DNA of 64,000 nucleotides from Hyphomicrobiales bacterium (GTDB lineage: Bacteria; Pseudomonadota; Alphaproteobacteria; Rhizobiales; Beijerinckiaceae), in contig JAIXUP010000040.1 in the NCBI GenBank assembly GCA_027483505.1, positions 1-64,000 of the forward strand, read 5' to 3'. The notes beneath the pieces were generated by a model, which was not told the origin of the DNA, searched no databases, and saw nothing but the letters and a program-made list of their open reading frames with translations. The translations under genes were made by a program, and so were the position numbers. Position 1 is the stretch's first letter. Each line of letters begins with the position of its first letter. This document shows, one piece after another, positions 43,883 through 64,000 of this stretch.

Positions 43883-44090
43883 GTCGACAATCCTTCCCGA
43901 TGTCTTGTGCCGGCACACGTCTCAACCCCTGGCCGGATGCGGAGAATTCCCACAGGAGGAAGGTGTAATCGCAGGGATGTGAATTGCAACTGAACCGTTT
44001 GCGTCGATTTCACGGCTGCCCCGCGCATTTGGGCCGTCGCAAAACGCCGCCGTCATGGTTAGGTTCTGATGATCCCCTCAGGAGAGCACC

Positions 44091-44798: not shown

Positions 44799-44865
44799 GC
44801 ACGGCACGCCTGCGCCATGCCCTCTCCCGACGGGTAGGGCGTGGCGCAGTTCGCAGGCAGACCTG

Positions 44866-45237: not shown

Positions 45238-45394
45238 GCTTCCTCCGATGCAGCCCTGTTTGCGGGCCGCTTGTTGTTCATATGTAAACTTTAGGGCAGC
45301 CATTGCCGCATTTCAACAGGCCCTCGGTTGCCGCGGACCGATTCCGGCGTCATGAATGCGGTGCTAAGGGTTTCCACGGGATCAGGACAACAGA

Positions 45395-46903
45395 ATGCCG
45401 ATGACCTATGACCTTGCCATCATCGGTGGCGGCATCAACGGCTGCGGAATCGCCCGGGATGCCGCGGGACGGGGCCTCAGCGTTCACCTCAGCGAAATGA
45501 ACGACCTGGCCAGCGGCACGTCGTCCTGGTCCACCAAGCTCATCCATGGCGGCCTGCGCTATCTCGAATACTACGAGTTCCGCCTCGTGCGCGAGGCGTT
45601 GATCGAGCGTGAACGGCTCTGGGCCATCGCGCCGCACATTATCCGCCCGCTGCGCTTCGTGCTGCCGCACCACAAGGGCCTGCGGCCGGCCTGGCTGCTG
45701 CGCCTCGGCCTGTTCCTTTATGACCATATCGGCGGCCGGAAGCTGCTTCCCGCCACGACGACACTGGATCTGGGCAGCGATGCCGCAGGCAAGCCACTGA
45801 AGCCGTGCCTGTTCACGAAAGGCTTCGAATACTCCGATTGCTGGGTCGACGACGCCCGTCTGGTCGCGCTCAACGCGCGCGATGCGGCGGCACGCGGCGC
45901 CGTGATCCGGACCCGGACGAAAGTCACCTCCGCGACACGCGAGAACGGCCTGTGGCAGTTGACAACGCAGGACATGCGCACGGGGACATCGGAGACCGTG
46001 GCTGCAAGGGCCCTCGTCAATGCAGCCGGGCCCTGGGTGGCGGAGGTGTTGAGCGGCGCCTTGCGGTCGAATTCGAAGGCGCGTGTGCGGCAGGTGCAGG
46101 GCTCCCACATCATCGTGCCGCGCATCTTCGACCATGACCGTGCCTACATTTTCCAGAATGCCGATGGCCGGATCATCTTCGCCATCCCGTATGAGCAGGA
46201 GTTCACCCTGATCGGCACCACCGATCAGGACTATCACGGCGATCCGGCGAAGGTGGCCATCACGCAAGGCGAGATCGACTATCTCTGCGCGGCGGCGAGC
46301 GAGTACTTCGCCAAGCCGGTCCTGCCGGAGCAGGTCGTCTGGACCTATTCCGGCGTCAGGCCACTCTACGATGACGGCGCCAGCGAGGCCAAGGCCGCCA
46401 CCCGGGACTATGTGTTCGAGATGGAGGCGCCTGACGGGGCGCCACCGCTGCTCTCGATCTTCGGCGGCAAGATCACCACCTACCGCCGCCTCGCCGAGGA
46501 GGCGCTCGAACGGCTTGAGCCGCACCTGCCCCATGCCGGCGCACGCAAGGCGGGCTGGACTGCGGACGAGCCGTTGCCCGGCGGGAACTTCGCACGCGGC
46601 GGGACCGAGGGCCTCGCTCGAGAACTGAAGGCCACGCACCCGTTCCTGTCGGAGAGGGACGCCCTGCGCCTTGCCCGCGCCTATGGCCATGAGGCCCGCA
46701 CCATCCTTGGCCAGGCGGCCTCTCGCGCAGATCTCGGCGCCGATTTCGGCGGAGGCCTCAGCGAGGCCGAAATCCGCCACCTGATCAGCCATGAATGGGC
46801 CATCGAAGCGGATGACGTCCTGTGGCGCCGCTCCAAGCTCGGCCTGCACCTCAACGCGGACCAGAAGCAGCATGTAGATGATTTCATGAGGAAACTGTCA
46901 TGA
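45395..46903 (+). CDS. glpD: glycerol-3-phosphate dehydrogenase
   Basis: DLAIIGGGINGCGIARDAAGRGLSVHLSEMNDLASGTSSWSTKLIHGGLRYLEYYEF. Confidence 0.95.
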   Translation: MPMTYDLAIIGGGINGCGIARDAAGRGLSVHLSEMNDLASGTSSWSTKLIHGGLRYLEYYEFRLVREALIERERLWAIAPHIIRPLRFVLPHHKGLRPAWLLRLGLFLYDHIGGRKLLPATTTLDLGSDAAGKPLKPCLFTKGFEYSDCWVDDARLVALNARDAAARGAVIRTRTKVTSATRENGLWQLTTQDMRTGTSETVAARALVNAAGPWVAEVLSGALRSNSKARVRQVQGSHIIVPRIFDHDRAYIFQNADGRIIFAIPYEQEFTLIGTTDQDYHGDPAKVAITQGEIDYLCAAASEYFAKPVLPEQVVWTYSGVRPLYDDGASEAKAATRDYVFEMEAPDGAPPLLSIFGGKITTYRRLAEEALERLEPHLPHAGARKAGWTADEPLPGGNFARGGTEGLARELKATHPFLSERDALRLARAYGHEARTILGQAASRADLGADFGGGLSEAEIRHLISHEWAIEADDVLWRRSKLGLHLNADQKQHVDDFMRKLS

Positions 46904-48306
46904 CCGACGCCTTCGATCACCACGCCGGTGTCGCCGAACTCCTGACCGCCTACCGCCGCAGGACGGTCTCGCCGGTGGAGGTTCTGACCGACGCCTACAG
47001 GCGGCTCGACGCCATTGCCGCAACGCTGAACCCGGTATCGTATGAGGATCGCGACGCAGCCTTCGTCGCCGCCCGCGCCTCGGAGGCGCGCTGGGCGCGC
47101 GGCGAACCGTGCGGTCAACTCGACGGCGTGGTCGGCAGCATCAAGTCGAACGTGATGAAGAACGGCTGGCCGATGCAGCGCGGCTCGAAGCTCTCGGCGC
47201 CTGTTCCCATGACCTTCGACAGCCCTGCCGTGGCCAGCCTTGAGCGCGCCGGAATGGTGGTGCTGTGCCAGACCACGATGCCGGAATTCGGCTGGAAAGG
47301 CGTAGGCGACAGCCCGCTCACCGGCATCACCCGCAACCCGCATGATCCATCGCGCACGACGGGCGGCTCATCTGCCGGTGCAGCGGTACTGGCCGCGCTC
47401 GGCATCGGGCACCTCCACCTTGGCACGGACGGCCTCGGCTCGGTCCGCATTCCGTCGAGCTTTTCCGGCGTCTTTGGCCTCAAGCCCAGCTTCGGCCGTG
47501 TTCCCGCCTATCCCGCCTCCCCATTCGGCATCCTGGCGCATCTCGGCCCGATGGCCCGCAGCGTCAGCGACGCGGCCCTCATGCTCAACGCCATGGCCCA
47601 GCCGGACGAGCGCGACATGCTGGCATGGAACACCACGCCCCCTGATTTCCGCATCGCGCTTGAGGACGGCGTCGCCGGCCTCAGGATCGGCTGGTCGCCG
47701 CGCCTCGGCTTCGTCGAAGGGCTCGACCCCGAGGTTGAACACATCTGCGCCGCTGCCGCGCGCCGCTTTGAACTGCTTGGCGCCAATGTCGAGGCGGCTG
47801 ATCCCGGCTTTGCCTATGAGGACGCCCGCCGTGCCGCCGATGTGATGTGGCAGGCCGGCGCCTCCGCCTTGTTGGGCGGCCTGCCGGAACAACGCAGGCC
47901 TGAACAGGATCCGGGCTTTGTCGCGGCCGGCCTTGCGGGGCAGGATCACAGCGCTGCGACGCTTGTCGCCGGGTTCCAGACCAGGGCGGTCATCGCCGAG
48001 ACCATGCGCCGCTACCATGAGCGCTACGACCTGCTCCTCACCCCGACGATGCCCGTCCCTGCCATCGAGGCCGGGCGCGACACGCCGGCCGATGGCAGCT
48101 TCGGCAATGATTGGGTGAACTGGTCGCCCTACACCTACCCGTTCAATCTCACGGGGCAGCCAGCGGCGTCGGTGCCGGTCGGCAAGACGGCATCTGGTCT
48201 GCCGGTCGGCCTGCAGATCGTCGGGCCGGCGCGCAAGGACCAGTTGGTGATGAAGGCAGCCCGCGCGCTCGAGAGCGCCGTGGGCTATGCCCATCTCAGC
48301 GACTGA
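46900..48306 (+). CDS. amidase family protein
   Basis: TRNPHDPSRTTGGSSAGAAV amidase signature; ATGA overlap with glpD. Confidence 0.9.
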   Translation: MTDAFDHHAGVAELLTAYRRRTVSPVEVLTDAYRRLDAIAATLNPVSYEDRDAAFVAARASEARWARGEPCGQLDGVVGSIKSNVMKNGWPMQRGSKLSAPVPMTFDSPAVASLERAGMVVLCQTTMPEFGWKGVGDSPLTGITRNPHDPSRTTGGSSAGAAVLAALGIGHLHLGTDGLGSVRIPSSFSGVFGLKPSFGRVPAYPASPFGILAHLGPMARSVSDAALMLNAMAQPDERDMLAWNTTPPDFRIALEDGVAGLRIGWSPRLGFVEGLDPEVEHICAAAARRFELLGANVEAADPGFAYEDARRAADVMWQAGASALLGGLPEQRRPEQDPGFVAAGLAGQDHSAATLVAGFQTRAVIAETMRRYHERYDLLLTPTMPVPAIEAGRDTPADGSFGNDWVNWSPYTYPFNLTGQPAASVPVGKTASGLPVGLQIVGPARKDQLVMKAARALESAVGYAHLSD

Positions 48307-49108
48307 GGTCGAAGGACCAGGACGTCGAGAAGCCAAGTTCGAGTTGGTGCCGCGAGCCCAGCGGGCTCACCACGATCGGCGCCCGCGACGCCCCGCCCGT
48401 CAGGTAGTCGTACTTGACGTAGGCCGTCGACTTGACCGCCGGAGTCCAGCGATAGGTGGCTTGGGCCAGGGCGCCAACGCTGTGGACGCCGCCCTTGCCG
48501 CGATAGACCGGATAACCGGATGCGGCCGCTTCCGCCGGGCTGACCGAGTAGTAGCTGTCGATGTAACGCGTGTTGACGATGGTGAGGCGCGGCCCGGCGC
48601 CGAATGACCAGACCGCGTTCGGGTCTGTGAAGGCATCAAGCTTGAGTTCGCTGACGAGGCCCTGATGGCCACGCACGGCCTGCCTGAGGTCAGCGCGGGC
48701 ACGCAGCCAATGCGTCGGATAGTATTCCCCGAATCCGCCGATCTCGACGCCGAACGGCACCTTGTCGAGGCCGTTGAGGCGGCGCTGGTCCTTGCCGGAG
48801 CGCGGCATCACCACAGCCGCCCCGGCCCCGGCGCGCCAGTTGTCGCCGTTCACGAGCCCGAAGCTGATCGCGTCATCCTCCGCCGACCACCAGCGCACGG
48901 CGCCGGCCCGGCCGAAACTGATGATCGGGCGAAAGGCGATCGAAAAGCGGTCCGCGCCGGCATAGGTCGGCTGCATCCGCACGCCTGCGCCGACTGTCAT
49001 CTGCCAGGGATTCTGCGAATTGCCTTGGGCATGGCCGGACTGGCCGAGCGAAACAAGAAGACCACACCCTGCAAGCAAGGCCAGCACAAACCGACGGAAG
49101 ATCGCCAT
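48296..49108 (-). CDS. MipA/OmpV family outer-membrane protein
   Basis: VGAGVRMQPTYAGADRFSIAFRPIISFG, beta-barrel ending in aromatic-rich C-terminus. Confidence 0.85.
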   Translation of the reverse strand: MAIFRRFVLALLAGCGLLVSLGQSGHAQGNSQNPWQMTVGAGVRMQPTYAGADRFSIAFRPIISFGRAGAVRWWSAEDDAISFGLVNGDNWRAGAGAAVVMPRSGKDQRRLNGLDKVPFGVEIGGFGEYYPTHWLRARADLRQAVRGHQGLVSELKLDAFTDPNAVWSFGAGPRLTIVNTRYIDSYYSVSPAEAAASGYPVYRGKGGVHSVGALAQATYRWTPAVKSTAYVKYDYLTGGASRAPIVVSPLGSRHQLELGFSTSWSFDLSR

Positions 49109-49219
49109 GGACGCAGACACCCGGACACGATACGCGATCCGGCGCTCGTGCCCGGACCCTGCATTTATCCTGAATGAAAGATGTAAGGCGATGGCTAACG
49201 AATGTGGTTAAGCGACTGT

Positions 49220-49801
49220 TTATCGCTGACCGTCCCATTTGCTGATGGCATCGGCGGCAAGCCCCCCCATGCGGGCATGTGGACGGCCGCCGGTCGACAT
49301 GCAAAGCGCGAACAGGATTTCGTCGGGCCGTGGCGCATCCGGCACCACGCAGGTGATCGCATCGAAATGCGAGCGCACATAGGCCGCATCCTTGTGATGG
49401 ATCGGCAGGTCGATCCCCGTCCCCATCGCCGCGACCTTGGCGGCGGACGGCACAATGGCCAGCGCCTGACCGATCAGTTCGCGCATCGCGTAGCCGCCGG
49501 GAACATGCCAGAGCGCGCCGTGCTCCACTTCGCCGTTCACGCCCACGATCGAGCCCTTGCCGTAGGCCTCGACCTCCGCCGGCTTGAGGCCCATGGCGGC
49601 GCACAGCCGCGTCGAGCATTCGAGCCCGAGCGGCTTGAGCTCATCCATGAACCATTGCAGGTCCGGCTCATAGCGGCCTGCGAACGGATTCTGGATCACG
49701 GCCGCCACCCAGCCCTTGCGCACGGGAGTGGCGAGGTCCGGTCCGCCGTCATGGCGGATGTCTTCGACACAGGTGACGAGCTTGCGCAGCCTGACGGTCA
49801 T
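49220..49801 (-). CDS. DUF1185 ('amino acid synthesis') family protein, function unknown
   Basis: VAAVIQNPFAGRYEPDLQWFMDELKPLG, last gene of overlapping operon. Confidence 0.8.
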   Translation of the reverse strand: MTVRLRKLVTCVEDIRHDGGPDLATPVRKGWVAAVIQNPFAGRYEPDLQWFMDELKPLGLECSTRLCAAMGLKPAEVEAYGKGSIVGVNGEVEHGALWHVPGGYAMRELIGQALAIVPSAAKVAAMGTGIDLPIHHKDAAYVRSHFDAITCVVPDAPRPDEILFALCMSTGGRPHARMGGLAADAISKWDGQR

Positions 49802-50673
49802 TTGTCGATTCCTGAACGGGTCTGGAGAAAGGTGTCTAGGGTTGTCGTGCGGCCCTGAAGCGTGAGGGCCGCATCCACGATCAACCCGCGGTCACGGAAG
49901 CTTCGCGCGAGCGCCACGCCATTATCGAGCGCAAGGTCGATCTCCGCCGTGGACAGAGGCGGAACAAGCACCGTCACCGGGCGCTCGCCGAGATCGCTGT
50001 CTGGATCGAGGTCGCGCGCGGGCCGGCGGACCACACGCGGATGATCCAGGTTGACGGCATTGGCCACAAGGCTGGCCGCCGCATCTGCGGCTGCAGCGTT
50101 CCGGGCCAGGACAGTCACCGAATCTGCGATCCCGAGCGAAAAGGACCGGCCCTGCGCGCCGGACGTGGCGATGCCGCGAACCGGCATCTCCGCCTTCAGG
50201 AACAGCTCCGCACTCTCGACCGGAATGGTGGAGCGCGAAAAATCGCCGACCACGCCCACCGTCAGGCTTTCCCCCGGGCTCATGTGAACGGCGACATCAC
50301 CGCCGTCATTGACAAAGGCGCGGCGCAGCCGGGCCGCGCCGAGCATGACAGCCAGCATTTCGTCGGCGACAGCGCCAGCCACGGCCGCCATCGGCGTGAT
50401 GAAAAAGCCGTCGAAGGGGGCGCAGGCATCACACATCCGCCGCGCGGTCGGCAGCGCCACCTCGGGCCGCGCCGCCATCGGCTTGCGCAGCTCCGGCAAC
50501 TCCGAGACGAGTTCATCCAGAATGGTCTGAAAACGGATGGCAGCGGCGCGATAGGCCGCCTCGACGTCGCTCTCGGCGCCCCAGGCGCGCAGCACCAGAT
50601 CGATCGGGCCGTGTTGCATGTGCACCTGCCCGCCGACCAGTTCCTGTACCAGCGGTCGCTGGACCATCGCCAT
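49798..50673 (-). CDS. UPF0280 family protein (ApbE-like fold expected)
   Basis: AVAGAVADEMLAVMLGAARLRRAFVNDGGDVAVHM. Confidence 0.8.
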   Translation of the reverse strand: MAMVQRPLVQELVGGQVHMQHGPIDLVLRAWGAESDVEAAYRAAAIRFQTILDELVSELPELRKPMAARPEVALPTARRMCDACAPFDGFFITPMAAVAGAVADEMLAVMLGAARLRRAFVNDGGDVAVHMSPGESLTVGVVGDFSRSTIPVESAELFLKAEMPVRGIATSGAQGRSFSLGIADSVTVLARNAAAADAAASLVANAVNLDHPRVVRRPARDLDPDSDLGERPVTVLVPPLSTAEIDLALDNGVALARSFRDRGLIVDAALTLQGRTTTLDTFLQTRSGIDK

Positions 50674-51134
50674 CAGCCAAGTTTCCCGATCAAGCCAAGC
50701 AACAGGTTTGCCTCGCTCGGCGTCAAGGGCGCAAGCGTCTTCTGCGACACCTTCGGAGCGAGGTGAATCATTTTCCGCGCGGCCTGTTCGCCTTCCGGCG
50801 TCAGGCTGATCATCACCAGCCGGGCGTCGAGCGGATCAGTGGACTGCGCGACCCAGCCTCTCCTGGCGAGACGGCCGACGACGCTGAAGATCGTCGCAGG
50901 GTCCATGGCCGTCAGCCGCCCCAGCAGGTTCTGGGAGGTCGGCCCAAGCTCGTGCAGCTTGGCGAGCGCCGCGAACTGCGTCGGCGTCACCCCGAACTGC
51001 TCCATCACCGCATTGAAGTGTTCGGTCGCCCGCTGCTGCGCCTTGCGCAGGAGGAACCCGACCTGATCTTCGAGGATGTATGGCGGGACAGCGCCAGCCG
51101 CGCCCTGGCTCTTTCGTCTGGCAAGCGCGCTCAT
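50673..51134 (-). CDS. MarR family transcriptional regulator
   Basis: FGVTPTQFAALAKLHELGPTSQNLLGRLTAMDPATIFSVVGRLARRGWVAQSTDPLDAR wHTH. Confidence 0.9.
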   Translation of the reverse strand: MSALARRKSQGAAGAVPPYILEDQVGFLLRKAQQRATEHFNAVMEQFGVTPTQFAALAKLHELGPTSQNLLGRLTAMDPATIFSVVGRLARRGWVAQSTDPLDARLVMISLTPEGEQAARKMIHLAPKVSQKTLAPLTPSEANLLLGLIGKLG

Positions 51135-52630
51135 CTCAGCCGGTCCTTTGGCCACGGGTTGCCATCGGGCCATGGCTCGATCCGGGCATCGGACGCAAAG
51201 GCGCGGATCATCTCGTCCATGCTGACAATGTCACCGCCATGGCCGCCAAGCTTCTCATAGAGCGCGCGCGGCAGCGTAAATTCGATCGGCGCCACGATGG
51301 CAGGGGTCGGCACATATCCGAACGAGCCTTTCGGCATGCGCGTCACATCCGCCATCACGGTGATGCCGCCGCCCGCCCAGATGTACGCCGGCGCGCCGCC
51401 CAGCGTCACCCGCGTCTCGCCCTTCGCCACAGAGCGGGTCAGCAGCACCGGATTCTCGCTGACCCCGGCCCGGAGGCTCCCGCCTGCACCAGCCATGAAC
51501 AGCACCGAGCACAGCGAAGGCTCGCAGTTCTCGCCGATGCGGGCCACAACCAGGCGCACCGCATCCGGCATCTCGGCGGGCACCGGCACGAGATTGTCGT
51601 CGAGAACGCAGTAGAGCGCGTCCTCGCCCGTCGTCGAGGTCAGCAACAGCCGCATGCCCGGCCATGCCACCGCCGGGTCGATCTTCTGGATGATCGACAG
51701 CGGATCGGAAATGTCGGTGCCGCCCCAGCCAAGCCCCGGATTGGCCACCTGGAAGTAACGCCCTGGCGTCGACTTGCGCCCGCGTACGCGGATGCCGCCG
51801 GGCCGCATGTCGAGCACGCGGCCGGCCTGATGCTCGGTCAGAACGCCGGTGATGTGGTCATCGACCACGATCACCTCATCGACATTCCCAAGCCATTGCT
51901 TGGCGAAGATGCCGACGGTGGCCGAGCCGCAGCCCACCCGCATGCGCTCCTCCGGCTTGCCGTCGACAATCGGAGCGGCGTTCGCCTGCACGATCACGCT
52001 GTGCCCGCCCGGAATGCTCATCTCGACCGCCTCGCCGGAGCAGAGCTTCAGCAAGGTGTCGCAGGTGACATTGCCCTCCTTCTTCGAGCCCCCGGTAAGG
52101 TGGCGCACGCCGCCGATCGAGAGCATCTGCGAGCCATATTCTGCCGTGGTCACATGGCCGACCTGCTCGCCGCCGACCATGACCGGCGCGGCTTCAGGCC
52201 CGAGATGCCGGTCGGTGTCGATCTTCACCTTGACGCCGCAATAGGAGAAAATGCCCTCCGTCACGACCGTGACGGTGTCGACGCCCTCGTGCTGTGACGA
52301 GACGATGAAAGGCGCGGGCTTATAGTCCGGATAGGTTGTGCCGGAACCGACGCCGGTGATGAAGGTGCGCGACGCATCGAGCGGCTGGCCATCCCAGTCC
52401 GTGCCGGCAAACTCGACCAGCTTGCCGCCGCCATCCACCGTCCGCTGCATCAAGAGCACCGGGTCTGTCCGGACCAATTGACCCTCGACATTCGCATAGC
52501 GCGAGCAAGCACCGGCCCGACCCGGCCTGATCCGGCACAGCACCGGACACGCGTCGCAACGCACGATGCCCTCGCCCTCGGCAGCGCCGAACTTGGCCGA
52601 GCGCGCGGCGGTGGAGAGGCTGTCGGTCAT
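51131..52630 (-). CDS. 6-hydroxynicotinate reductase-like Fe-S protein
   Basis: N-terminal CDACPVLCRIRPGRAGACSRY Fe-S motif and overall resemblance to Hnr family. Confidence 0.75.
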   Translation of the reverse strand: MTDSLSTAARSAKFGAAEGEGIVRCDACPVLCRIRPGRAGACSRYANVEGQLVRTDPVLLMQRTVDGGGKLVEFAGTDWDGQPLDASRTFITGVGSGTTYPDYKPAPFIVSSQHEGVDTVTVVTEGIFSYCGVKVKIDTDRHLGPEAAPVMVGGEQVGHVTTAEYGSQMLSIGGVRHLTGGSKKEGNVTCDTLLKLCSGEAVEMSIPGGHSVIVQANAAPIVDGKPEERMRVGCGSATVGIFAKQWLGNVDEVIVVDDHITGVLTEHQAGRVLDMRPGGIRVRGRKSTPGRYFQVANPGLGWGGTDISDPLSIIQKIDPAVAWPGMRLLLTSTTGEDALYCVLDDNLVPVPAEMPDAVRLVVARIGENCEPSLCSVLFMAGAGGSLRAGVSENPVLLTRSVAKGETRVTLGGAPAYIWAGGGITVMADVTRMPKGSFGYVPTPAIVAPIEFTLPRALYEKLGGHGGDIVSMDEMIRAFASDARIEPWPDGNPWPKDRLR

Positions 52631-52645
52631 GCCGCAAACCCTACC

Positions 52646-52804
52646 CGCGCGTTTCCGGGGCCGAGTAGCGCAAGCGGATCGGAACCCGGAATCCAGGCAT
52701 TGTCTTGTGAGCGCAGCGAACACAGAATTTCGAGCGCTTCGCGCGAAACGATCTCTGGATTCCGGGTTCCATTCCGCTGCGCTGCATGGCCCCGGAAACG
52801 CGCG
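52646..52804. repeat. long imperfect inverted repeat (arms about 50 bp, loop about 58 bp)
   Basis: Left CGCGCGTTTCCGGGGCC...GGAACCCGGAATCCAG (52646-52696) vs reverse complement of right arm (52755-52804). Confidence 0.9.
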
Positions 52805-52817
52805 AAAGTTTCGGCCA

Positions 52818-55570
<2,753 letters not shown>

Positions 55571-55571
<1 letters not shown>

Positions 55572-56431
55572 CAGGCAACGCTCCGGACGGCACCGCCCGC
55601 AAAGCCGGCCAGCACATCGCGAACCAGCGTCAGCGCCGCGTCCTGTCGGTATGCACCCGTACTGCGCACGTCGTTGATGGGCCGAAGCCCGGCGAGATGG
55701 TCCACCGCGACGATGTCAGGCGCATCGGCAAGGCTCTTCCCTTGCAAGGCGGCCTCAAGAGCGGTCAATCGCTGCGCCACCGCCGAGCATGAGCCGACAG
55801 CCAGACGCGCAGCCGTAATTGCGCCCTTGTCCGCCTCAATCACCGCAGCAACCATGACGATCGAGATCACCAGATACTTTCGCGCGCCGAGCTTCAGGAA
55901 CCGTCCCTGGCCCGCCGATTTCGGCACCAGCAGCGCGGTCACGATCTCGTCTGCTTCCACCGCTGTCGCGCGATAGCCCGTGATGAAGTCCGGGATGGGC
56001 ACAAGCCGCACCCCGCGCTGCGAGCTGAGTTCCACTTCGGCATCCAGCGTCAGCAGGCACGGAATGCCGTCCCCGGCAGGCGATGCGGTGCAGATATTCC
56101 CCGCCAGCGTGCCGCGGTTCTGGATCTGCACGCCGCCGACCTCGCGCGCCGCCATGCGGTAGCCATCGAACAGCGGCGGCAGGTCTGCACGGATCAGATC
56201 GGTCCAGGTCGTCAGCGCCCCGAACCGCCAGTGGTCAGCATGCTCGCTTATCCCGCGCAATGCGCTGAGAGCGGACATGTCGAGCACGTCCTTGTGGGCA
56301 GGATCGCCCCAGGCGCGCCGCGTTGCGAAGGCTGGATAGACATCCGTGCCGCCCGCCAAAACCTGCACGTCGTGTCGGGCGCGGATTGCGAGCGCGTCAG
56401 TGAGCGTAGCGGGACGATGATAGCCGATCAT
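55571..56431 (-). CDS. FAD-binding subunit of molybdenum hydroxylase
   Basis: LAGGTDVYPAF, VQIQNRGTLAGNICTASPAGD motifs. Confidence 0.93.
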
Positions 56432-58119
56432 GCATGCTCCCGAAACAAGCGGGCCGCCTCGTCCGCCGTGAAATACCCCCGCAGGACATCACGCGCCACC
56501 AGCGCGGGGTCACGCGCCGAGGCCGGGCCATAGCCCCCGCCGCCCGGCGTCATCACCTCGACACGGTCACCGGCCTTCAGCGGCACATCCTGATCCTTCG
56601 ACAGATGCTCGGGCGTGAACACCTCTCCGCCACGATGGATGCGCACAATGTTTGGCGCACCGTCCTGCCCGCCTTGCACGCCGGGCGGGCCAAACCGGCC
56701 ATGGTCCATCACGAACGAGGCCCGTGCCTCCCCGCGCAGCAACTCTACCTCGTAGTGCACGCCGAAGCCGCCGCGATGCTGACCCGCCCCACCCGAGCCT
56801 TCGCGCAGGGCAAAGCGCCGGAACAAGATCGGGTAGTACTGCTCCATCACCTCGACAGGCGCGGTCTTGGAAATCCCGATGGTCGAGCAGCCATTGCTCA
56901 ATCCGTCATGCTCGATGTTGCCGCCATAGCCCCCGCCGGAGATCTGGTACATCACATAGGCCGCGCCCTTGGCCGGATCGAAGCCGCCAAGCGCAAAGTT
57001 GCCGGAAGACCCCGCCGGCGCCGCCGTCACCTTTTCGGGGATCGCCTTGGCCAGCGCCAGGAACACCGCTTCGGCAATGCGCTGCGAAACCTCGGCCGCA
57101 CAGCCTGACACCGGGCGCGGATAGCGGGCGTCGAGGAATGTGCCTTCCGGCCTGACGATCTTGAGCGGCTCGAACGCCCCGGCATTCAGCGGCGTATCGG
57201 GAAAAATGTGACGGATGGCGAGGTAGACGGCGGAATAGGTCGTCGCCACGACCGAGTTCATCGGCCCCCGGCACGGCGGCGACGAGCCGGTAAAATCGAA
57301 TCCAAGTTCAGTGCCTTGTACCGTAACCTTCAAGGCGATCGTGAGCGGCTCGTTGACCACGCCATCGGAGTCGACGAACGCCTCGGACGTGTAGACGCCA
57401 TCCGGAATTCCCGCGATGTGGGCCCGCATCAGTTCCGCAGCCCGGACGCGCATGTCTGCGATCGCGGCCCTCAGGGTTGCCGCGCCATAGCGCGCGACCA
57501 GTTCGGCCAGCCTGTTTGCGCCGACCTTCAGCGCCGACGCCTGCGCCTTGATATCTCCAATGCGCTGGTCAGCCACACGGATGTTGGAGGTGATGATCGA
57601 ATAGATCTCCTGATCCATCACTCCGCGCTTGAACAGCTTGACCGGCGGCAGGCGCAGGCCCTCCTGCTCGACTTCGGTCGCCTTGGCCGAGAAGCCTCCT
57701 GGCACCATGCCGCCGATGTCAGGCCAGTGACCCGTATTCTGCAGCCAGCAGAACAGTTCGCCATCGACATGGAACGGCATCGCGAAGCGCACATCCATGA
57801 GGTGCGTGCCGCCGAGATAGGGGTCGTTGACAATGTAGATGTCCTCGGGCTCGGGCGGAGCCACCCGTCCTTCGCGGATCAGCCGGATGATGGCGGCGGT
57901 CGAATGCTGCATTGTGCCGACGAAGACCGGCAGGCCGAACTCGCCCTGTGCGATCAGGGCGCCATCCTCGATCGCGTAGATGCCGGATGACCGGTCATCG
58001 GCCTCAGCGATCACGGGCGAGAAGGCCGAGCGGGTGAAAGCGATGTCCATCTCGTTGCAGACCTGCGTCAGGCCCGCCTGGATGACTGCAATGGTGAGGG
58101 CATCGGGTTTTTCGGTCAT
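56428..58119 (-). CDS. hydantoinase B/oxoprolinase family protein
   Basis: FTRSAFSPVIAEADDRSSGIYA, NDPYLGGTHLMDV motifs. Confidence 0.95.
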   Translation of the reverse strand: MTEKPDALTIAVIQAGLTQVCNEMDIAFTRSAFSPVIAEADDRSSGIYAIEDGALIAQGEFGLPVFVGTMQHSTAAIIRLIREGRVAPPEPEDIYIVNDPYLGGTHLMDVRFAMPFHVDGELFCWLQNTGHWPDIGGMVPGGFSAKATEVEQEGLRLPPVKLFKRGVMDQEIYSIITSNIRVADQRIGDIKAQASALKVGANRLAELVARYGAATLRAAIADMRVRAAELMRAHIAGIPDGVYTSEAFVDSDGVVNEPLTIALKVTVQGTELGFDFTGSSPPCRGPMNSVVATTYSAVYLAIRHIFPDTPLNAGAFEPLKIVRPEGTFLDARYPRPVSGCAAEVSQRIAEAVFLALAKAIPEKVTAAPAGSSGNFALGGFDPAKGAAYVMYQISGGGYGGNIEHDGLSNGCSTIGISKTAPVEVMEQYYPILFRRFALREGSGGAGQHRGGFGVHYEVELLRGEARASFVMDHGRFGPPGVQGGQDGAPNIVRIHRGGEVFTPEHLSKDQDVPLKAGDRVEVMTPGGGGYGPASARDPALVARDVLRGYFTADEAARLFREHA

Positions 58120-60167
58120 GTCAGACCCGCCACAATGCGCAGATTGCCGATCGCGTCCACCCGCGCGCTCCAGCCCGGCTCGATGATCGTGGTGGCGTCG
58201 ATCTGCTGCACGACTGCAGGACCCGCCACCAGCGCGCCGATGGGGAGCATCTCGCGCTGATAGACCTTGGCATCATGCCAAACGCCATCCGCAAAGAGCG
58301 GCCGCAGGCCGACCACCGCTTCGTCAGCGGTGGCCTTGCGCCCATCTGAATCAATCAGGCTCGCCAGCGGCAGCGCCCGGCGCTTGCCGATCACCGAAGT
58401 GATGAGATTGACCAGCACCGCGCGGATTTCCGGCAACGTGACCTGAAAGCGCTTGAAGTAAGCAGCCTCGAACAGCGCCTGCAAAGCCTCGCGGCTGACC
58501 TCGCCGGCAGGCAAAGCCACGCGGATCAGATGCGTCTGCCCGCGGAACTGCATGTCGGCCCCGTGCAGCACCACGGTTTCGACGATCTCGTCCTGCTCAT
58601 CGGCGTTGATCGCCAGCCCCTGCGCCCTCTGCGCTGCCAGCACCGTAGCGACATGGCCCATGTCGGCCTGATCAAGCCCGATGTTCAGCGTTTGCACGAA
58701 ATCCTGGCGCAGGTCCGCGACGAGGCACCCCAGCGCATTGGTCAGTCCCGGCCTGGCCGGCACCAGCACTTCAGCCAGACCAAGCTCCCGCGCCAACGCC
58801 ACGGCATGAAGCGGCCCCGCACCACCGAAGGCGAACAGCGCGAAATCGCGCGGATCATGCCCGCGCGAGAGCGACACCATGCGGATCGCCCCTGCCATGT
58901 GCATGTTGCCAAGGGTCAGCACGGCAGATGCTGCCGCTTCGATGCTGAGCCCAAGCGGCCTGGCCAGCTTCGCCTCCACGATGGCCCGCACATGGTCGAC
59001 CGTGACGGGGTTCTTCACCGCGAGCAGCTTGCCCGGATCAAGCCGCCCGAGCACGAGATTGGCATCGGTGATGGTGACGTCGGCGCCGCCGCGCCCGTAG
59101 CAGATCGGGCCGGGCTCCGAGCCAGCCGAATGCGGGCCGACAGTCAGCATGCCGGCGGCATTCAGCGTTGCGATGGAGCCGCCGCCCGCGCCGACCGTGC
59201 GCACATCGACCATCGGCACATGGATCGGCAGGCCATAGGCGATGGTGAGTTCAGCCGACACCTCCGGCACGCCGCCATGGATCAGCGCCACATCCGTCGA
59301 GGTGCCGCCCATGTCATAGGTGATGGCGTTGGCGAGGCCGGATTGCTCCAGCGTCGCGGCTGCTGCCATCACGCCCGAGGCCGGGCCGCTCATCACCGTC
59401 TTCGCGGCATCGCGCGCCACAAGACGGGCGGAGACCGTGCCGCCATTGCCGTTCATGACCAAGAGGTCACGCCTGAAGCCCCGCGCTTCAAGCTCGCCTT
59501 GAAGCCGACGGATGTAGCGATCAAGGATCGGTTGCACGGCGGCGTTGACGCTCGCCGTCGTGCCGCGTTCATACTCGCGGTATTCGGAGAGCAGCGCATG
59601 GCCGAGCGTGATGTAGCCATTCGGCCAGATGTCGCGCGCGATCTCGCCGGCGCGCAATTCATGCGACGGGTTGGCATAGGCGTGCAGGAAGTGGATCACC
59701 AGCGCCTCGCAGCCATCGGCGATCAGCCTTTGCGCGGCCTCCCGCACGGCGCCTTCTTCAAGCGCTGTGACCACCTGCCCGCGCGCATCCATCCGCTCGG
59801 GAATTTCGATGCGAAGCTCGCGCGGTATCAGCGGCTCGAAGGTGCCGAACAGGCCATAGGGCTTGGGCCGCGTCCGGCGGCCAAGCTCCAGCGTGTCACG
59901 GAAACCCATGGTGGTGATCAGGCCGACGCGGGCCAGCTTGCGTTCCAGCACGGCATTTGTGGTGGCCGTGGTGCCGTGGATGATCAAGTCGAGATCAGCA
60001 GGCAAAACCCCGGTCGCCTCAATGGCGGCGATCACGCCATGCGCCTGGTTGCCCGCCGTGGTGGGGATTTTCGCCAGCCTGACGGTTCCCGCCTCACCTG
60101 CAACCGCCTCGTAAAGCAGCAGATCGGTGAACGTGCCCCCCACATCGATGCCAGCCACACGGCGCAA
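58116..60167 (-). CDS. hydantoinase A/oxoprolinase family protein
   Basis: GIDVGGTFTDLLLYE, IHGTTATTNAVLERK, YDMGGTSTDVALI motifs. Confidence 0.95.
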   Translation of the reverse strand: MRRVAGIDVGGTFTDLLLYEAVAGEAGTVRLAKIPTTAGNQAHGVIAAIEATGVLPADLDLIIHGTTATTNAVLERKLARVGLITTMGFRDTLELGRRTRPKPYGLFGTFEPLIPRELRIEIPERMDARGQVVTALEEGAVREAAQRLIADGCEALVIHFLHAYANPSHELRAGEIARDIWPNGYITLGHALLSEYREYERGTTASVNAAVQPILDRYIRRLQGELEARGFRRDLLVMNGNGGTVSARLVARDAAKTVMSGPASGVMAAAATLEQSGLANAITYDMGGTSTDVALIHGGVPEVSAELTIAYGLPIHVPMVDVRTVGAGGGSIATLNAAGMLTVGPHSAGSEPGPICYGRGGADVTITDANLVLGRLDPGKLLAVKNPVTVDHVRAIVEAKLARPLGLSIEAAASAVLTLGNMHMAGAIRMVSLSRGHDPRDFALFAFGGAGPLHAVALARELGLAEVLVPARPGLTNALGCLVADLRQDFVQTLNIGLDQADMGHVATVLAAQRAQGLAINADEQDEIVETVVLHGADMQFRGQTHLIRVALPAGEVSREALQALFEAAYFKRFQVTLPEIRAVLVNLITSVIGKRRALPLASLIDSDGRKATADEAVVGLRPLFADGVWHDAKVYQREMLPIGALVAGPAVVQQIDATTIIEPGWSARVDAIGNLRIVAGLT

Positions 60168-60193
60168 TCGGCAGACCCCTCATTCGGATGAGA

Positions 60194-60211
60194 TCATTTG
60201 TGCACGAATGA
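60194..60211. promoter_or_regulatory. near-perfect 18-bp palindrome TCATTTGTGCACGAATGA, candidate MarR operator
   Basis: Half-sites TCATTTGTG / TCATTCGTG match 8 of 9; lies 26 bp upstream of hyuA-like start. Confidence 0.5.
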
Positions 60212-60268
60212 GTTTGGCGGGCAAGGTGGGTGATGACTTTTGAAGCTGGCTGCGCAATTCTTAAGTCC

Positions 60269-60601
60269 ATGATCATTGCGACGCGCCGACTGACGATCGA
60301 CACAGGCACAGACCAGCACGCGCTTGAGATACGCATTTATGCTCCGGTAGCAACAGACGTCGATTTTTGCTGTTCTTACGAGATTGACTGGCCCGGACGT
60401 GTCGAAAAAACAGCGATGTTTGGTCTCGACAGCGCGCAAGCCCTGATCCTTGAGTTCAATGCCATAGGCAGCACTTTGTATAGCAGCGAGTATCACGAAA
60501 ACGGTCAATTGAGTTGGAACGATGAGGCGTCGGGTTATGGGTTTCCCGTGGTACCGACATTGCGGCAGATGCTCGTCGGCGACGACGCCCGTTTCTTCTG
60601 A
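60269..60601 (+). CDS. small protein of unknown function (DUF6968-like)
   Basis: MIIATRRLTIDTGTDQHALEIRIYAPV...FCCSYEIDWPG; opposite strand to flanking operons. Confidence 0.6.
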   Translation: MIIATRRLTIDTGTDQHALEIRIYAPVATDVDFCCSYEIDWPGRVEKTAMFGLDSAQALILEFNAIGSTLYSSEYHENGQLSWNDEASGYGFPVVPTLRQMLVGDDARFF

Positions 60602-60606
60602 CCCAA

Positions 60607-61320
60607 TCAGACCGTCAGATATGCTTCCCTGACCTCATCATTCGCCTCAAGCTCCGCCATCGTGCCCGAAAAGCGGATCGCGCCTTTTTCGATGACATAG
60701 GCGCGGTCGGAGACAGCCGCCGCGAAGTGCAGGTTCTGCTCGCATAGCAGCACCGCTATACCTGTCGCCTTCATGGCAATCACGGCTTCGGCCATCTGCT
60801 CGACGATGACAGGGGCCAGCCCTTCGGACGGCTCGTCCAGCAGCACCATGTCGGGGTTGCCCATCAGCGTGCGGGCGATTGTCAGCATCTGCTGCTCGCC
60901 GCCCGACATGGCCGAGGCGCGGCGGCCCTCCATTTCTGCGAGATTGGGAAAGATCGCGTAGAGCTTTTCCAGCGTCCACGCCTTACGGCCATCACGCGCC
61001 GGGCGGCGGCCCACTTCAAGGTTCTCCTGCACGGTGAGGTCCGTGAAGATGCGGCGTTCCTCTGGCACATAGCCGAGGCCGAGCCGGGCGATACGGTAGG
61101 ATGGCAGCCTGCGGATGTCCTCGCCGGCGAAGCTCAAGGCCTCTGCACTCGCCTCAACCATGCCAATGATCGCCTTCAGCGTCGTGGTCTTGCCGGCGCC
61201 ATTGCGGCCCATCAGCGCCACCACCTCGCCGCGCCGCGCATCAAGCGAGACGCCGAACAGCACCTCCGCCATGCCATAGGCGGCGCTGAGATTGCGGATG
61301 CTCAGGAGGGCTTCGGTCAT
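60607..61320 (-). CDS. branched-chain amino-acid-type ABC transporter ATP-binding protein (LivF-like)
   Basis: GRNGAGKTTTLKAIIG, MSGGEQQMLTIARTLMGNPDMVLLDEPSEGLAP. Confidence 0.95.
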   Translation of the reverse strand: MTEALLSIRNLSAAYGMAEVLFGVSLDARRGEVVALMGRNGAGKTTTLKAIIGMVEASAEALSFAGEDIRRLPSYRIARLGLGYVPEERRIFTDLTVQENLEVGRRPARDGRKAWTLEKLYAIFPNLAEMEGRRASAMSGGEQQMLTIARTLMGNPDMVLLDEPSEGLAPVIVEQMAEAVIAMKATGIAVLLCEQNLHFAAAVSDRAYVIEKGAIRFSGTMAELEANDEVREAYLTV

Positions 61321-61350
61321 CGTGGAACGCGCCTGCTTCGTTCACCCGCC

Positions 61351-61431
61351 ATCCTCATCCTGAGCTTGTCGAAGGAGGAGAAGTCAGCCTGCATCACACT
61401 GGAAGCATCCGACGACGGGCTCAGGATGAGA
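61351..61431. repeat. pair of inverted REP-like elements (BIME-like)
   Basis: CTCATCCTGAGCTTGTCGAAGGAG and, inverted, CATCCGACGACGGGCTCAGGATGAG. Confidence 0.65.
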
Positions 61432-61456
61432 ATGGTGGGGCTCGGACGGGCGGCCA

Positions 61457-62236
61457 TCACACCCGCCCCCGCCGTGCCCGCATCGCAGCCGCCACGCCCA
61501 TGTCGCCGAGGTATACCTGCTTGACGCGCGCGTTGGAGCGGACCTCGTCGGGCTTGCCGTCGGCGATGATCTCGCCGCGCACCAGCACCAGGATGCGGTC
61601 GGCATGGGCGAAGACCGCGTCCATGTCATGCTCGGTGAACAGCACGCCGATCTTGCGCTGCCGCGCGATGGTCGCGGTGATGTCCATCAGTTGCGCCCTC
61701 TCCTTCGGCGCCATGCCGGCGGTCGGCTCGTCCATCAGCAAGAGCTTTGGCGCGGAAGCGAGCGCGATCGCCAGCTCCACGCGCTTGACGTCGCCATAGG
61801 CCAACTCACGCACCGGACGGTCGGCGTCCGCGCGCATGCCGACGAGATCGAGCAGGTCCAGCGCCTCGGGCCGATAGCGGGTCTCGGCCCGCGCGCCAAC
61901 TGACATGATCTGGTCATGCCACGAGATCAGCGCCATCTGCACATTCTCGGCCACGCTCATCGACACGAAGGTCTGCGCAATCTGGAAGGTGCGCCCGATG
62001 CCGCGCCGCCAGACCTCGCGCGGCGCGAGGCCCGAGATCGGCTGGCCCGCCAGCAGCACTTGCCCTGAATCAGGGCGAAGCTGCCCGCCGACCATGTTGA
62101 ACGTGGTCGATTTGCCCGCCCCGTTCGGCCCGATGATGGCCAGCATGTCGCCGGCCTCCAGCGCGAAGGCCACGTCCTTGGCGGCCACCACGCCGCCGAA
62201 GCGCTTGTTGAGGCCTGTGACCTTGAGCAGCGTCAT
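61457..62236 (-). CDS. branched-chain amino-acid-type ABC transporter ATP-binding protein (LivG-like)
   Basis: MTLLKVTGLNKRFGGVVAAKDVAF, GPNGAGKSTTFNMVGG. Confidence 0.93.
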   Translation of the reverse strand: MTLLKVTGLNKRFGGVVAAKDVAFALEAGDMLAIIGPNGAGKSTTFNMVGGQLRPDSGQVLLAGQPISGLAPREVWRRGIGRTFQIAQTFVSMSVAENVQMALISWHDQIMSVGARAETRYRPEALDLLDLVGMRADADRPVRELAYGDVKRVELAIALASAPKLLLMDEPTAGMAPKERAQLMDITATIARQRKIGVLFTEHDMDAVFAHADRILVLVRGEIIADGKPDEVRSNARVKQVYLGDMGVAAAMRARRGRV

Positions 62237-64000
62237 GAGGGCGCGACCGCAGGCTTTGGCGCCGGTTTGAAACGGTCCGTCAGCGAGGCCGCGGCCCCCG
62301 AAATCCCGCGCGGGAAGACCAGCACCATGAGGATGATCGAAGCCCCGAGGAACATCCGCCAGAAATCCGTCAGCGGCATGAAGAAGTCCTTGATCGAGTG
62401 AAACGCAGCCGCCCCGACCAGCGGGCCAATCACCGTCTGGATGCCGCCCAGCAGCACCATCACCAGAAAGTCCACCGACATCGGGATCGAGATCATCGTC
62501 GGGTCGATCGAGCCCTTCGAGAAAGAGTAAAGGCCTCCCGCAAGGCCCGCCGCCGCTCCCGACAGCGTGAAGGCAAACCAGCGGATGCGGCGCACATCGA
62601 TTCCAATGGCGTCGGCGCGCGTCGCGCTGTCGCGTGCCGCCCGCAAGGCATAGCCGAACGGCGCGTAGATGGCATGGCGCAGCGCGATGATGGCGCTCAG
62701 CGTGAAGGCAAGCACGACGCAGAAATACACCTGCCGGCTTGACGCCCAGCTTGAGGGCCAGACGCCGACGACGCCATTGTCGCCTCCGGTGAACTCGACC
62801 CACTGGAAGCACACCGCATAGACGATCTGCGCGAAGGCCAGCGTCAGCATGGCGAGATAGATGCCGGACAGCCGCACAACGAAATAGCCGAACAGGGCGG
62901 CGAACGCCCCCGCGATGATCGGCGCCAGCAGGATCGACGGCTCCATGGAGAGGCCACCCTTTGTTACAAGCAGCCCGGCGGCATAGGCGCCGAGTCCGAA
63001 ATAGGCTGCATGCCCGAACGAGACGATGCCGCCGACACCGATCAGGAAATGCAGCGAAAACGCTGCCAGCGCCAGCACCAGCACCTCGATGCCGACCTTG
63101 ACCATGTAGTTGTCGCCGAACACGGGCAATGCCAGCAGCACGGCGATGGCCAAGCCCGCCACGATGTTGTCGACCGTGCCGAAGCGCTTCAGCGACAGGA
63201 TGCCCTCGGGCAGGATCGCCCTCCCCGCCGCAGCATCAGATTTGCCGAACAGGCCCCACGGCTTGACCACGAGCACCACCGCCATCAGCAGGAACACCAG
63301 CACCAGCGTGATCTTCGGGAAGATGAGGATGCCGAAGGCTTGCAATTGCCCGATGATCAGCGCTGCGATGAAGGCGCCGGGCACCGACCCCATGCCCCCG
63401 ATCACGGTGACCACAAAGACCTCGGTGATGATCGAGATGTCCATCTGCGTGTTGATCGCCACACGCGGGATCTGCAGCGCGCCGCCAAGGCCCGCCAGGA
63501 AAGCGCCGAGGAACAGCGTGCCGGTGAACAGCCAGGCCTGGTTGACGCCGAGCGCAGCCACCATCTCGCGGTCCTGCGTCGCGGCGCGGATCAGCACGCC
63601 GAAACGCGTCTTCTGCATCAGCAGCCATAGCACAGCCAGAACCACGATCCCGGCTGCGATCAGGAAGAGTTCATAGGCGGGAAAGCGCTGGTCCATGATG
63701 AACACGCCATGGCGCAGGGATGGCGCACGCGGACCGGGGATTTCGACCGCGCCCCAGATCTTGATGACAAGGTCCTGCACGATCAGCACGACGCCGAAAG
63801 TCGCAAGCAACTGAAAGAGTTCCGGTACGTGGTAGATTCGGCGCAGGAGGATGATTTCCATCAAGGCGCCGAACACGCCGACGATCAGCGCGGAGATGAG
63901 GACGCCGAGCAGGAACATCGGCAGCGAGCGGTCGACATCGAGCAGCAGCGGCACGATCGTGACGGCGAGATAGGCCCCCAGCATGTACAGCGAGCCATGG
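62233..64000 (-). CDS. fused LivH-LivM ABC transporter permease (start beyond window)
   Basis: LivH-type N half continues in frame upstream (HGSLYMLGAYLA) to the window edge; LivM-type GGIVSFGHAAYFGLGAYAAGLL C half. Confidence 0.9.
   Translation of the reverse strand, partial: HGSLYMLGAYLAVTIVPLLLDVDRSLPMFLLGVLISALIVGVFGALMEIILLRRIYHVPELFQLLATFGVVLIVQDLVIKIWGAVEIPGPRAPSLRHGVFIMDQRFPAYELFLIAAGIVVLAVLWLLMQKTRFGVLIRAATQDREMVAALGVNQAWLFTGTLFLGAFLAGLGGALQIPRVAINTQMDISIITEVFVVTVIGGMGSVPGAFIAALIIGQLQAFGILIFPKITLVLVFLLMAVVLVVKPWGLFGKSDAAAGRAILPEGILSLKRFGTVDNIVAGLAIAVLLALPVFGDNYMVKVGIEVLVLALAAFSLHFLIGVGGIVSFGHAAYFGLGAYAAGLLVTKGGLSMEPSILLAPIIAGAFAALFGYFVVRLSGIYLAMLTLAFAQIVYAVCFQWVEFTGGDNGVVGVWPSSWASSRQVYFCVVLAFTLSAIIALRHAIYAPFGYALRAARDSATRADAIGIDVRRIRWFAFTLSGAAAGLAGGLYSFSKGSIDPTMISIPMSVDFLVMVLLGGIQTVIGPLVGAAAFHSIKDFFMPLTDFWRMFLGASIILMVLVFPRGISGAAASLTDRFKPAPKPAVAPS

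What the first reader, a model, noticed from the sequence alone, without database searches (positions are those of the whole stretch)
49220..60167. Eight-gene overlapping operon suggesting an undescribed reductive N-heterocycle degradation pathway
Seen: minus-strand order hyuA, hyuB, FAD subunit, fused 2Fe2S/Mo hydroxylase, Hnr-like reductase, MarR, UPF0280, DUF1185. All neighbours overlap by 1-4 bp except one gap. Known: Mo hydroxylases hydroxylate N-heterocycles; 6-hydroxynicotinate reductase of Eubacterium barkeri reduces the resulting pyridone ring to a lactam; HyuA/HyuB-type enzymes hydrolyse cyclic amides with ATP. Inference: the operon encodes hydroxylation, partial ring reduction and ATP-dependent lactam opening of an unknown substrate. 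This combination differs from the Eubacterium route, which opens the ring with an enamidase, and from the classic aerobic nicotinate route. UPF0280 and DUF1185 would be pathway parts of unknown role.
Basis: partly seen in the sequence, partly recalled or inferred. Interest (0 to 1): 0.82.

Follow-up and report, generated by a model that had tools for sequence, protein, structure and literature searches.

The report
Nicotinate operon with ATP-driven ring opening
This Bosea-type bacterium carries an operon that very probably breaks down vitamin B3 (nicotinate) by hydroxylating and then reducing its ring; it belongs to a known route, except that an ATP-consuming enzyme pair replaces the usual ring-opening enzyme, and one helper protein of unknown function turns out to accompany the ring reductase everywhere.

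Summary
The operon is real. Its substrate is very probably nicotinate, not an unknown compound. The route (6-hydroxylation, Hnr reduction to THON = 1,4,5,6-tetrahydro-6-oxonicotinate, ring opening) is known from Eubacterium barkeri and Azorhizobium, and a conserved proteobacterial cluster was described in 2012 (PMC3511419).

What differs is ring opening. In 141 distinct Hnr loci, 47 carry an enamidase homologue, 50 carry HyuA/HyuB, 44 show neither in the stretch held, and none carries both. The two swap repeatedly on the Hnr tree. All four combinations of hydroxylase type (XDH or NicAB) and ring opener occur. Several HyuAB loci hold a nicotinamidase or NicAB. So HyuAB most likely opens THON with ATP in place of enamidase. 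No held paper reports this.

UPF0280 occurs in exactly the same genomes as Hnr (33 of 33; 0 of the other 366 in a phylum sample), always adjacent. Its model matches the ApbE/FmnB flavin-transferase fold, and the own genome has no ApbE. E. barkeri Hnr carries covalent flavin (from memory). I propose flavin maturation of Hnr, but the ApbE general-base histidine is missing. DUF1185 accompanies either ring opener; its role is inferred only.

Verdict: new variant of a known kind.

The parts
58116..60167 (-). HyuA-type ATP-binding subunit; proposed THON-activating subunit of an ATP-dependent lactamase (start TTG 60167 or GTG 60158)
   Evidence: Pfam Hydantoinase_A 293 bits; NCBIfam caprolactamase alpha 490 bits, below its equivalog cut-off of 1000; PDB 7hk5 and 6yra; ATP motifs DVGGTFTD, DMGGTSTD, GSEPGP conserved
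56428..58119 (-). HyuB-type metal-binding subunit; proposed hydrolytic ring-opening subunit
   Evidence: Pfam Hydantoinase_B 541 bits; CapB metal tetrad D41/H99/D102/H124 aligns with D42/H106/D109/H131
55571..56431 (-). FAD subunit of the molybdenum hydroxylase
   Evidence: Pfam FAD_binding_5 and CO_deh_flav_C
52818..55571 (-). Fused [2Fe-2S]/molybdopterin hydroxylase subunit, proposed nicotinate 6-hydroxylase
   Evidence: Fer2, Fer2_2, Ald_Xan_dh_C, MoCoBD_1 and MoCoBD_2; fused in frame to Hnr in several relatives
52646..52804 (.). Palindromic repeat element that makes up most of the only gap in the operon
   Evidence: Self-inverted match and partial or full copies on contigs C22, C25 and C28
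51131..52630 (-). Hnr-like reductase (6-hydroxynicotinate reductase); likely start ATG 52630
   Evidence: 61-78% identity to plasmid homologues, most of the annotated ones named 6-hydroxynicotinate reductase; 8 Cys conserved in at least 97% of 136 homologues
50673..51134 (-). MarR-family regulator (likely start ATG 51134)
   Evidence: Pfam MarR; ATGA overlap with hnr; best match in the Paracoccaceae La 6 locus, which carries a MarR-type gene labelled nicR, is 48% identical
49798..50673 (-). UPF0280 protein, ApbE-like fold; proposed flavin-maturation partner of Hnr
   Evidence: NF003322 374 bits; same 33 of 399 genomes as Hnr, always adjacent; model pLDDT 92 matching 2o34 and ApbE/FmnB/Ftp
49220..49801 (-). 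DUF1185/AA_synth protein; proposed enamine deaminase or 2-formylglutarate-processing step
   Evidence: PF06684 233 bits; solved relatives 3byq and 2qtp; near 46 of 47 enamidase loci and 36 of 50 HyuAB loci
60607..61320 (-). LivF/UrtE-type ABC ATPase, putative nicotinate uptake
   Evidence: Pfam ABC_tran; same-strand ABC genes recur beside Hnr loci
61457..62236 (-). LivG-type ABC ATPase
   Evidence: Pfam ABC_tran and BCA_ABC_TP_C; gene start from coding-score analysis
62233..64000 (-). ABC permease of 628 aa with two BPD_transp_2 stretches; continues to contig position 64119, followed by the binding protein at 64303-65568
   Evidence: BPD_transp_2 and Peripla_BP_6

Best explanation
The operon encodes a reductive nicotinate catabolic route. 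The FAD + [2Fe-2S]/Mo hydroxylase makes 6-hydroxynicotinate. Hnr, matured by the ApbE-fold protein UPF0280, reduces it to 1,4,5,6-tetrahydro-6-oxonicotinate (THON). HyuA/HyuB then open the six-membered lactam with ATP, replacing the metal-dependent enamidase of Eubacterium barkeri. Lactam hydrolysis would release the enamine 2-(aminomethylene)glutarate, which must lose ammonia to give 2-formylglutarate; DUF1185 is a candidate for that or the next step. The Liv-type ABC transporter would import nicotinate and MarR would regulate. Shown by comparison: gene content, the Hnr/UPF0280 pairing, enamidase/HyuAB alternation, conserved HyuAB active-site motifs, the UPF0280 fold. Inferred: every reaction, the substrate, and the roles of UPF0280 and DUF1185.
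For: (1) In 141 distinct Hnr loci, 47 have an enamidase homologue, 50 HyuA/B, 44 neither in the stretch held, 0 both. The enamidase homologue hits E. barkeri enamidase 2vun with 348 bits. (2) Genome-wide in relatives: of 29 Hnr genomes, 23 have strong enamidase (over 500 bits) and no HyuB above 45% identity; the other 6 have HyuB at 72-100% and no strong enamidase. All eight HyuAB-type genomes of a phylum sample lack enamidase at E 1e-30. (3) On the Hnr tree the partner changes 10 times, at least 4 forced by supported branches; likewise on the Mo tree, 6 changes, at least 4 forced. (4) All four hydroxylase x ring-opener combinations occur: XDH+Ena 29, XDH+Hyu 37, NicAB+Ena 13, NicAB+Hyu 4. (5) Nicotinamidase lies by Hnr in 7 HyuAB loci; the two HyuAB-locus copies tested pass NCBI's curated cut-off. 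nicA/nicB annotations stand in HyuAB loci. (6) HyuA ATP motifs and HyuB metal ligands are intact; a relative, OplAB, hydrolyses the six-ring lactam delta-valerolactam (PMC11033972). (7) Mo hydroxylase and Hnr are one reading frame in several relatives. (8) The known pathway and cluster: PMC3511419, PMC9304392.
Against: No reaction is demonstrated. Forty-four loci show neither ring opener in the stretch held, and six Hnr genomes have no enamidase and no HyuAB within about 20 kb where contigs allow, so a third opener or unlinked HyuAB exists. G040 and G056 hold both local HyuAB and a distant enamidase paralogue (40-43%) elsewhere. The nicA/nicB names are submitters' annotation. HyuAB could still carboxylate or act on a related lactam. 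Counts of loci are not corrected for relatedness except by the tree tests.
Confidence: 0.76

Rival explanations
1. The operon degrades a different N-heterocycle (another pyridine carboxylate, hydroxypyridine or pyrimidine); HyuAB opens that compound's reduced ring.
For: HyuAB-type loci near the window form one Hnr clade (22 all-Hyu rows), so a substrate shift within that clade is possible; substrate specificity of the Mo subunit cannot be read from sequence.
Against: Repeated interchange with enamidase on Hnr and Mo trees, NicAB and nicotinamidase in HyuAB loci, shared transporter family.
Confidence: 0.14
2. HyuAB does not open THON: it acts later or sideways (ATP-dependent carboxylase, 5-oxoprolinase or other lactamase), and an unrecognised enzyme, possibly DUF1185, opens the ring.
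For: The family includes acetone and acetophenone carboxylases; DUF1185 has conserved His/Glu/Asp residues; some Hnr genomes show neither enamidase nor nearby HyuAB.
Against: DUF1185 accompanies enamidase as well (46 of 47), so it does not replace it; HyuAB is the gene that alternates with enamidase; it scores much nearer to lactamases than to carboxylases (NCBIfam beta subunit 301 against 103 bits).
Confidence: 0.1

Closest known systems
Eubacterium barkeri nicotinate fermentation cluster (ndh, hnr, ena; Alhapel 2006)
   Same: Mo nicotinate hydroxylase, Hnr, hydrolytic opening of THON
   Different: Window has HyuAB instead of enamidase, an FAD + fused 2Fe2S/Mo hydroxylase instead of the split two-subunit Mo protein, and UPF0280/DUF1185. 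Whether E. barkeri has UPF0280 was not tested.
Nicotinate cluster of Azorhizobium caulinodans, Bradyrhizobium japonicum, Rhodopseudomonas palustris HaA2 and strain SG-6C (PMC3511419)
   Different: Genes there were found by BLAST with the E. barkeri cluster, so enamidase type is implied; HyuAB is not mentioned in the text (the figure itself was not readable)
Pseudomonas jessenii caprolactamase CapAB and Pseudomonas OplAB (PMC8453981, PMC11033972)
   Same: Same two-subunit ATP-dependent lactamase family; motifs and metal ligands conserved; six-ring lactams are substrates of OplAB
   Different: No member is recorded in the papers read as acting in pyridine or nicotinate breakdown
ApbE/FmnB/Ftp flavin transferases
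   Same: UPF0280 model matches this fold; the Ser and Asp of the conserved Ser/His/Asp set align
   Different: Cytosolic-type short protein, lacks the ApbE general-base His, and Hnr lacks the canonical flavinylation motif

Membership tests
Reductive (THON) nicotinate catabolic pathway | 6-hydroxynicotinate reductase (Hnr) | tested here: met
   61-78% identity to 26 plasmid homologues, most of the annotated ones named 6-hydroxynicotinate reductase; strain SG-6C Hnr is reported 42% identical to E. barkeri Hnr (PMC3511419). Window protein not compared directly with E. barkeri.
Reductive (THON) nicotinate catabolic pathway | Molybdenum nicotinate hydroxylase | tested here: inconclusive
   Mo hydroxylase subunits present, fused to Hnr in relatives; substrate not determinable from sequence
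Reductive (THON) nicotinate catabolic pathway | Enamidase opening THON | tested here: not met
   No enamidase in the own genome: only a 22-bit partial hit; HyuAB stands in its place
Reductive (THON) nicotinate catabolic pathway | THON and 2-formylglutarate or glutarate as intermediates | not testable with these tools
   Needs metabolite analysis
Oxoprolinase/hydantoinase ATP-dependent hydrolases | ATP-phosphate and adenosine motifs in the A subunit | tested here: met
   DVGGTFTD, DMGGTSTD, GSEPGP aligned with CapA
Oxoprolinase/hydantoinase ATP-dependent hydrolases | Asp-His-Asp-His metal tetrad in the B subunit | tested here: met
   D42, H106, D109, H131, conserved in at least 97% of 43 homologues
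Oxoprolinase/hydantoinase ATP-dependent hydrolases | ATP-dependent lactam hydrolysis | not testable with these tools
   Enzyme assay needed
ApbE flavin transferase family (for UPF0280) | ApbE fold | tested here: met
   AF2 model pLDDT 92.3; after 2o34 all Foldseek hits up to E 0.03 are ApbE/FmnB/Ftp, though global TM-scores are only 0.33-0.50; hhalign to ApbE E 4.8e-5, probability 68%
ApbE flavin transferase family (for UPF0280) | Conserved Ser, His (general base) and Asp of the active site | tested here: not met
   Ser (S171) and Asp (D197) align and are conserved; the His does not. UPF0280 is therefore not filed as an ApbE.
ApbE flavin transferase family (for UPF0280) | Target protein with D-x-x-[ST]-G-A-[ST] motif | tested here: not met
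   Absent in all 105 Hnr sequences; D[DE]HITGV-x-[ST] is nearly universal instead
P. putida-type aerobic nic pathway | Decarboxylating 6-hydroxynicotinate monooxygenase and dioxygenase ring cleavage | not tested
   Not searched for in the own genome; the operon itself holds none of these genes

The most novel reading that the evidence does not exclude
UPF0280 is a new kind of flavin transferase or flavin-loading chaperone dedicated to Hnr, distinct from ApbE. In addition, hydroxylase and Hnr form one redox loop: electrons released by 6-hydroxylation are passed directly to Hnr, so that nicotinate + H2O gives THON with no net redox change. The hydroxylase-Hnr fusions, and the rarer presence of ferredoxin-NADP reductase beside adjacent XDH-type hydroxylases (11 of 76 against 11 of 20 NicAB-type loci), point that way.
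Probability: 0.33. Interest if true: 0.78.

Novelty: new variant of a known kind. Interest (0 to 1): 0.62.

Why it matters
It gives a testable enzyme for ring opening in many nicotinate-degrading soil and marine bacteria that lack enamidase. It assigns a first substrate to a large group of genes called 'hydantoinase' or 'acetophenone carboxylase'. It also links two structurally solved families of unknown function (UPF0280/DUF375 and DUF1185) to defined biochemical steps. The perfect Hnr-UPF0280 pairing is a strong functional lead, and Hnr itself has no solved structural relative that these searches could find.

Tried and rejected
Hnr against the PDB by sequence and by fold (model pLDDT 78): no credible match. 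NCBIfam equivalog names for HyuAB (caprolactamase, acetophenone carboxylase) are all below cut-off, so they do not name the substrate. Canonical ApbE motif in Hnr: absent. Rfam on 48000-64000: nothing. Promoter-like sites are no more frequent than in shuffles. A first ORF picker by length chose antisense shadow ORFs and was replaced by a codon-score picker. The codon picker fails on lower-GC loci (L113, L115, L131, L133), so all final counts use tblastn. The primary papers (Alhapel 2006; Kitts 1989 and 1992) are not held. No paper found joins hydantoinase with 6-hydroxynicotinate, and none in the held library contains 'UPF0280'.
Full report
OBSERVATION. Start choices give overlaps of 4 (HyuA/HyuB), 4 (HyuB/FAD), 1 (FAD/Mo), a gap, then 4 (Hnr/MarR, ATG at 51134), 1 and 4 bp. 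The gap between the Mo subunit and Hnr is mostly a palindromic repeat of about 160 bp (52646-52804) with other copies in the genome. In most relatives these two genes lie closer or are one reading frame, so the gap looks like a later insertion (inference). The genome is of the Bosea group: one same-genus handle, G001, has the Hnr contig of Bosea psychrotolerans. Directly upstream on the same strand stand LivF, LivG, a 628-aa permease and a Peripla_BP_6 binding protein.

WHAT THE HNR-LIKE GENE IS. It has no Pfam or NCBIfam hit. It is 61-78% identical over 84-93% of its length to genes on 26 plasmids, most of the annotated ones named 6-hydroxynicotinate reductase. Eight cysteines are conserved in at least 97% of 136 homologues. 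No solved structure resembles it by sequence or by fold (model pLDDT 78).

NEIGHBOURHOODS. Ninety-nine loci from relatives and named genomes were compared first; plasmid loci and 32 loci from a phylum sample were added. One 400-aa family next to many Hnr genes hits the E. barkeri enamidase 2vun with 348 bits, so those loci carry the known THON ring opener. In 141 distinct Hnr loci, 47 carry enamidase, 50 carry HyuA/HyuB (HyuB above 60% identity, or HyuA above 54% where HyuB is cut off), 44 show neither in the stretch held, and none carries both. A first count of 74 resolved loci gave 38 HyuAB and 36 enamidase, with none holding both.

COMPLEMENTARITY. Among 61 whole relatives, 29 have Hnr. Twenty-three of these have enamidase above 500 bits and no HyuB above 45% identity. 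The other six, including the own genome, have HyuB at 72-100% and no strong enamidase. Two of the six (G040, G056) hold a distant enamidase paralogue (40-43%) on another contig. In the phylum sample, none of eight HyuAB-type genomes has enamidase at E 1e-30, while seven of thirteen without a nearby opener do. Six Hnr genomes remain without a recognised opener; about 20 kb on either side, where contigs allow, showed none.

REPEATED SWAPS. On the Hnr tree the partner label changes 10 times, at least 4 forced by supported branches. On the Mo tree it changes 6 times (at least 4 forced), on the transporter binding-protein tree 3 (3 forced), on the UPF0280 tree 8 (at least 2 forced). All four combinations of hydroxylase and opener exist: XDH-type + enamidase 29, XDH-type + HyuAB 37, NicAB-type + enamidase 13, NicAB-type + HyuAB 4. 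Sulfitobacter pontiacus (enamidase) and Sagittula or Pseudosulfitobacter (HyuAB) have closely similar plasmid operons otherwise. This is what replacement of one enzyme by another at the same step would leave behind.

SUBSTRATE. HyuAB loci contain nicA/nicB, annotated nicotinate dehydrogenase, in Neorhizobium and Paracoccaceae La 6. Seven HyuAB loci hold a nicotinamidase-like gene; the two such copies tested from HyuAB loci pass NCBI's curated nicotinamidase cut-off, 219 and 224 against 174 bits. The homologue in L183 matches solved nicotinamidase 2wt9 with 263 bits. In the own contig a nicotinate phosphoribosyltransferase fragment lies about 9 kb upstream of the operon; this linkage may be accidental. 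The route nicotinate - 6-hydroxynicotinate - THON is known from E. barkeri and Azorhizobium (PMC3511419; PMC9304392). [quoted passage not shown]

HOW HYUAB WOULD WORK. The caprolactamase paper (PMC8453981) assigns ATP activation to CapA and hydrolysis at a metal site to CapB. The window proteins keep the ATP motifs and the Asp-His-Asp-His metal tetrad (D42, H106, D109, H131). OplAB hydrolyses delta-valerolactam (PMC11033972), a six-membered lactam like THON. Hydrolysis of THON at the lactam bond would give 2-(aminomethylene)glutarate, an enamine, and then 2-formylglutarate and ammonia (chemical inference). Enamidase is reported to do both steps (PMC9304392).

UPF0280. In 399 genomes across the phylum, Hnr is found in 33 and UPF0280 in exactly the same 33, each time next to it; among 61 relatives, 29 and the same 29. 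In the 141 loci it is missing only where the contig ends just after Hnr (L116, L121). Its predicted structure (pLDDT 92) matches DVU1097 (2o34) and then only ApbE, FmnB and Ftp flavin transferases up to E 0.03, with modest global TM-scores (0.33-0.50 for the ApbE group). Profile comparison with ApbE gives E 4.8e-5, probability 68%. The own genome has no ApbE. From memory (Alhapel 2006, not held), E. barkeri Hnr carries covalently bound flavin. A flavin-loading role for UPF0280 is therefore the best guess, at about 0.5. Against it: of the three ApbE residues named as conserved (Ser241, His257, Asp285; PMC12052999), Ser and Asp have counterparts (S171, D197) but His does not, and Hnr lacks the ApbE target motif. 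It is not filed as an ApbE.

DUF1185. It accompanies both ring openers (46 of 47 and 36 of 50 loci), often in two copies. Structures of the family are chorismate-mutase-like hexamers of unknown function (PMC2954203). Conserved E91, E93, H94, H99, D131, H136 and H145 suggest an enzyme. RidA-type imine deaminases have a similar fold (from memory), so enamine deamination or a step on 2-formylglutarate is proposed; confidence is low, about 0.3.

ELECTRON FLOW. Hydroxylation yields two electrons and Hnr uses two, so nicotinate + water = THON overall. In several relatives the hydroxylase and Hnr are one protein of 1441-1527 aa. Ferredoxin-NADP reductase is found beside 11 of 76 loci with an adjacent XDH-type hydroxylase but 11 of 20 NicAB-type loci (Fisher p 0.0004, relatedness not corrected). 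The own contig does have one about 8 kb upstream. A direct electron loop is possible and unproven.

VERDICT. A known pathway with one replaced step and a newly tied helper protein: new variant of a known kind.

Noticed in passing
52646-52804: Palindromic repeat of about 160 bp with full or partial copies on contigs C22, C25 and C28; it separates the Mo subunit from Hnr and creates a false upstream GTG start for Hnr.
   Followed up: partly
G000:C17:67817-69336 (L034:11818-13337): Ferredoxin-NADP reductase and a contig-end fragment of nicotinate phosphoribosyltransferase stand upstream of the transporter genes, beyond the window's end; a GGDEF/EAL gene on the other strand lies between.
   Followed up: partly
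L038, L041, L042, L043, L055, L067: Mo hydroxylase and Hnr are fused in one reading frame of 1441-1527 aa, in both enamidase-type and HyuAB-type loci.
   Followed up: partly
L045, L046, L048, L049 (about 5800-8800) and L086 (5319-8216): A quinolinate phosphoribosyltransferase and a fused P-loop/thymidine-phosphorylase-like protein lie next to Hnr in one Bosea group and in an unrelated MAG.
   Followed up: no
G110, G130, G332, G255, G391, G425 (L183-L185, L193, L191, L194): Hnr genomes with no enamidase anywhere and no HyuAB within about 20 kb; a third ring opener or an unlinked HyuAB is expected.
   Followed up: partly
G076:C1:2969781-2971261 (L195): Hnr appears split into two overlapping reading frames near residue 250 of the query; a frameshift or a real split.
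   Followed up: no
window 42065-48306: Plus-strand genes for an M81-family metallopeptidase, a glutathione transferase, a DAO-type oxidoreductase and an amidase; not part of the conserved cluster.
   Followed up: no
L137, L143, L145, L096, L106, L110: A VanA-type Rieske oxygenase recurs beside Hnr in marine and other loci; role unknown.
   Followed up: no
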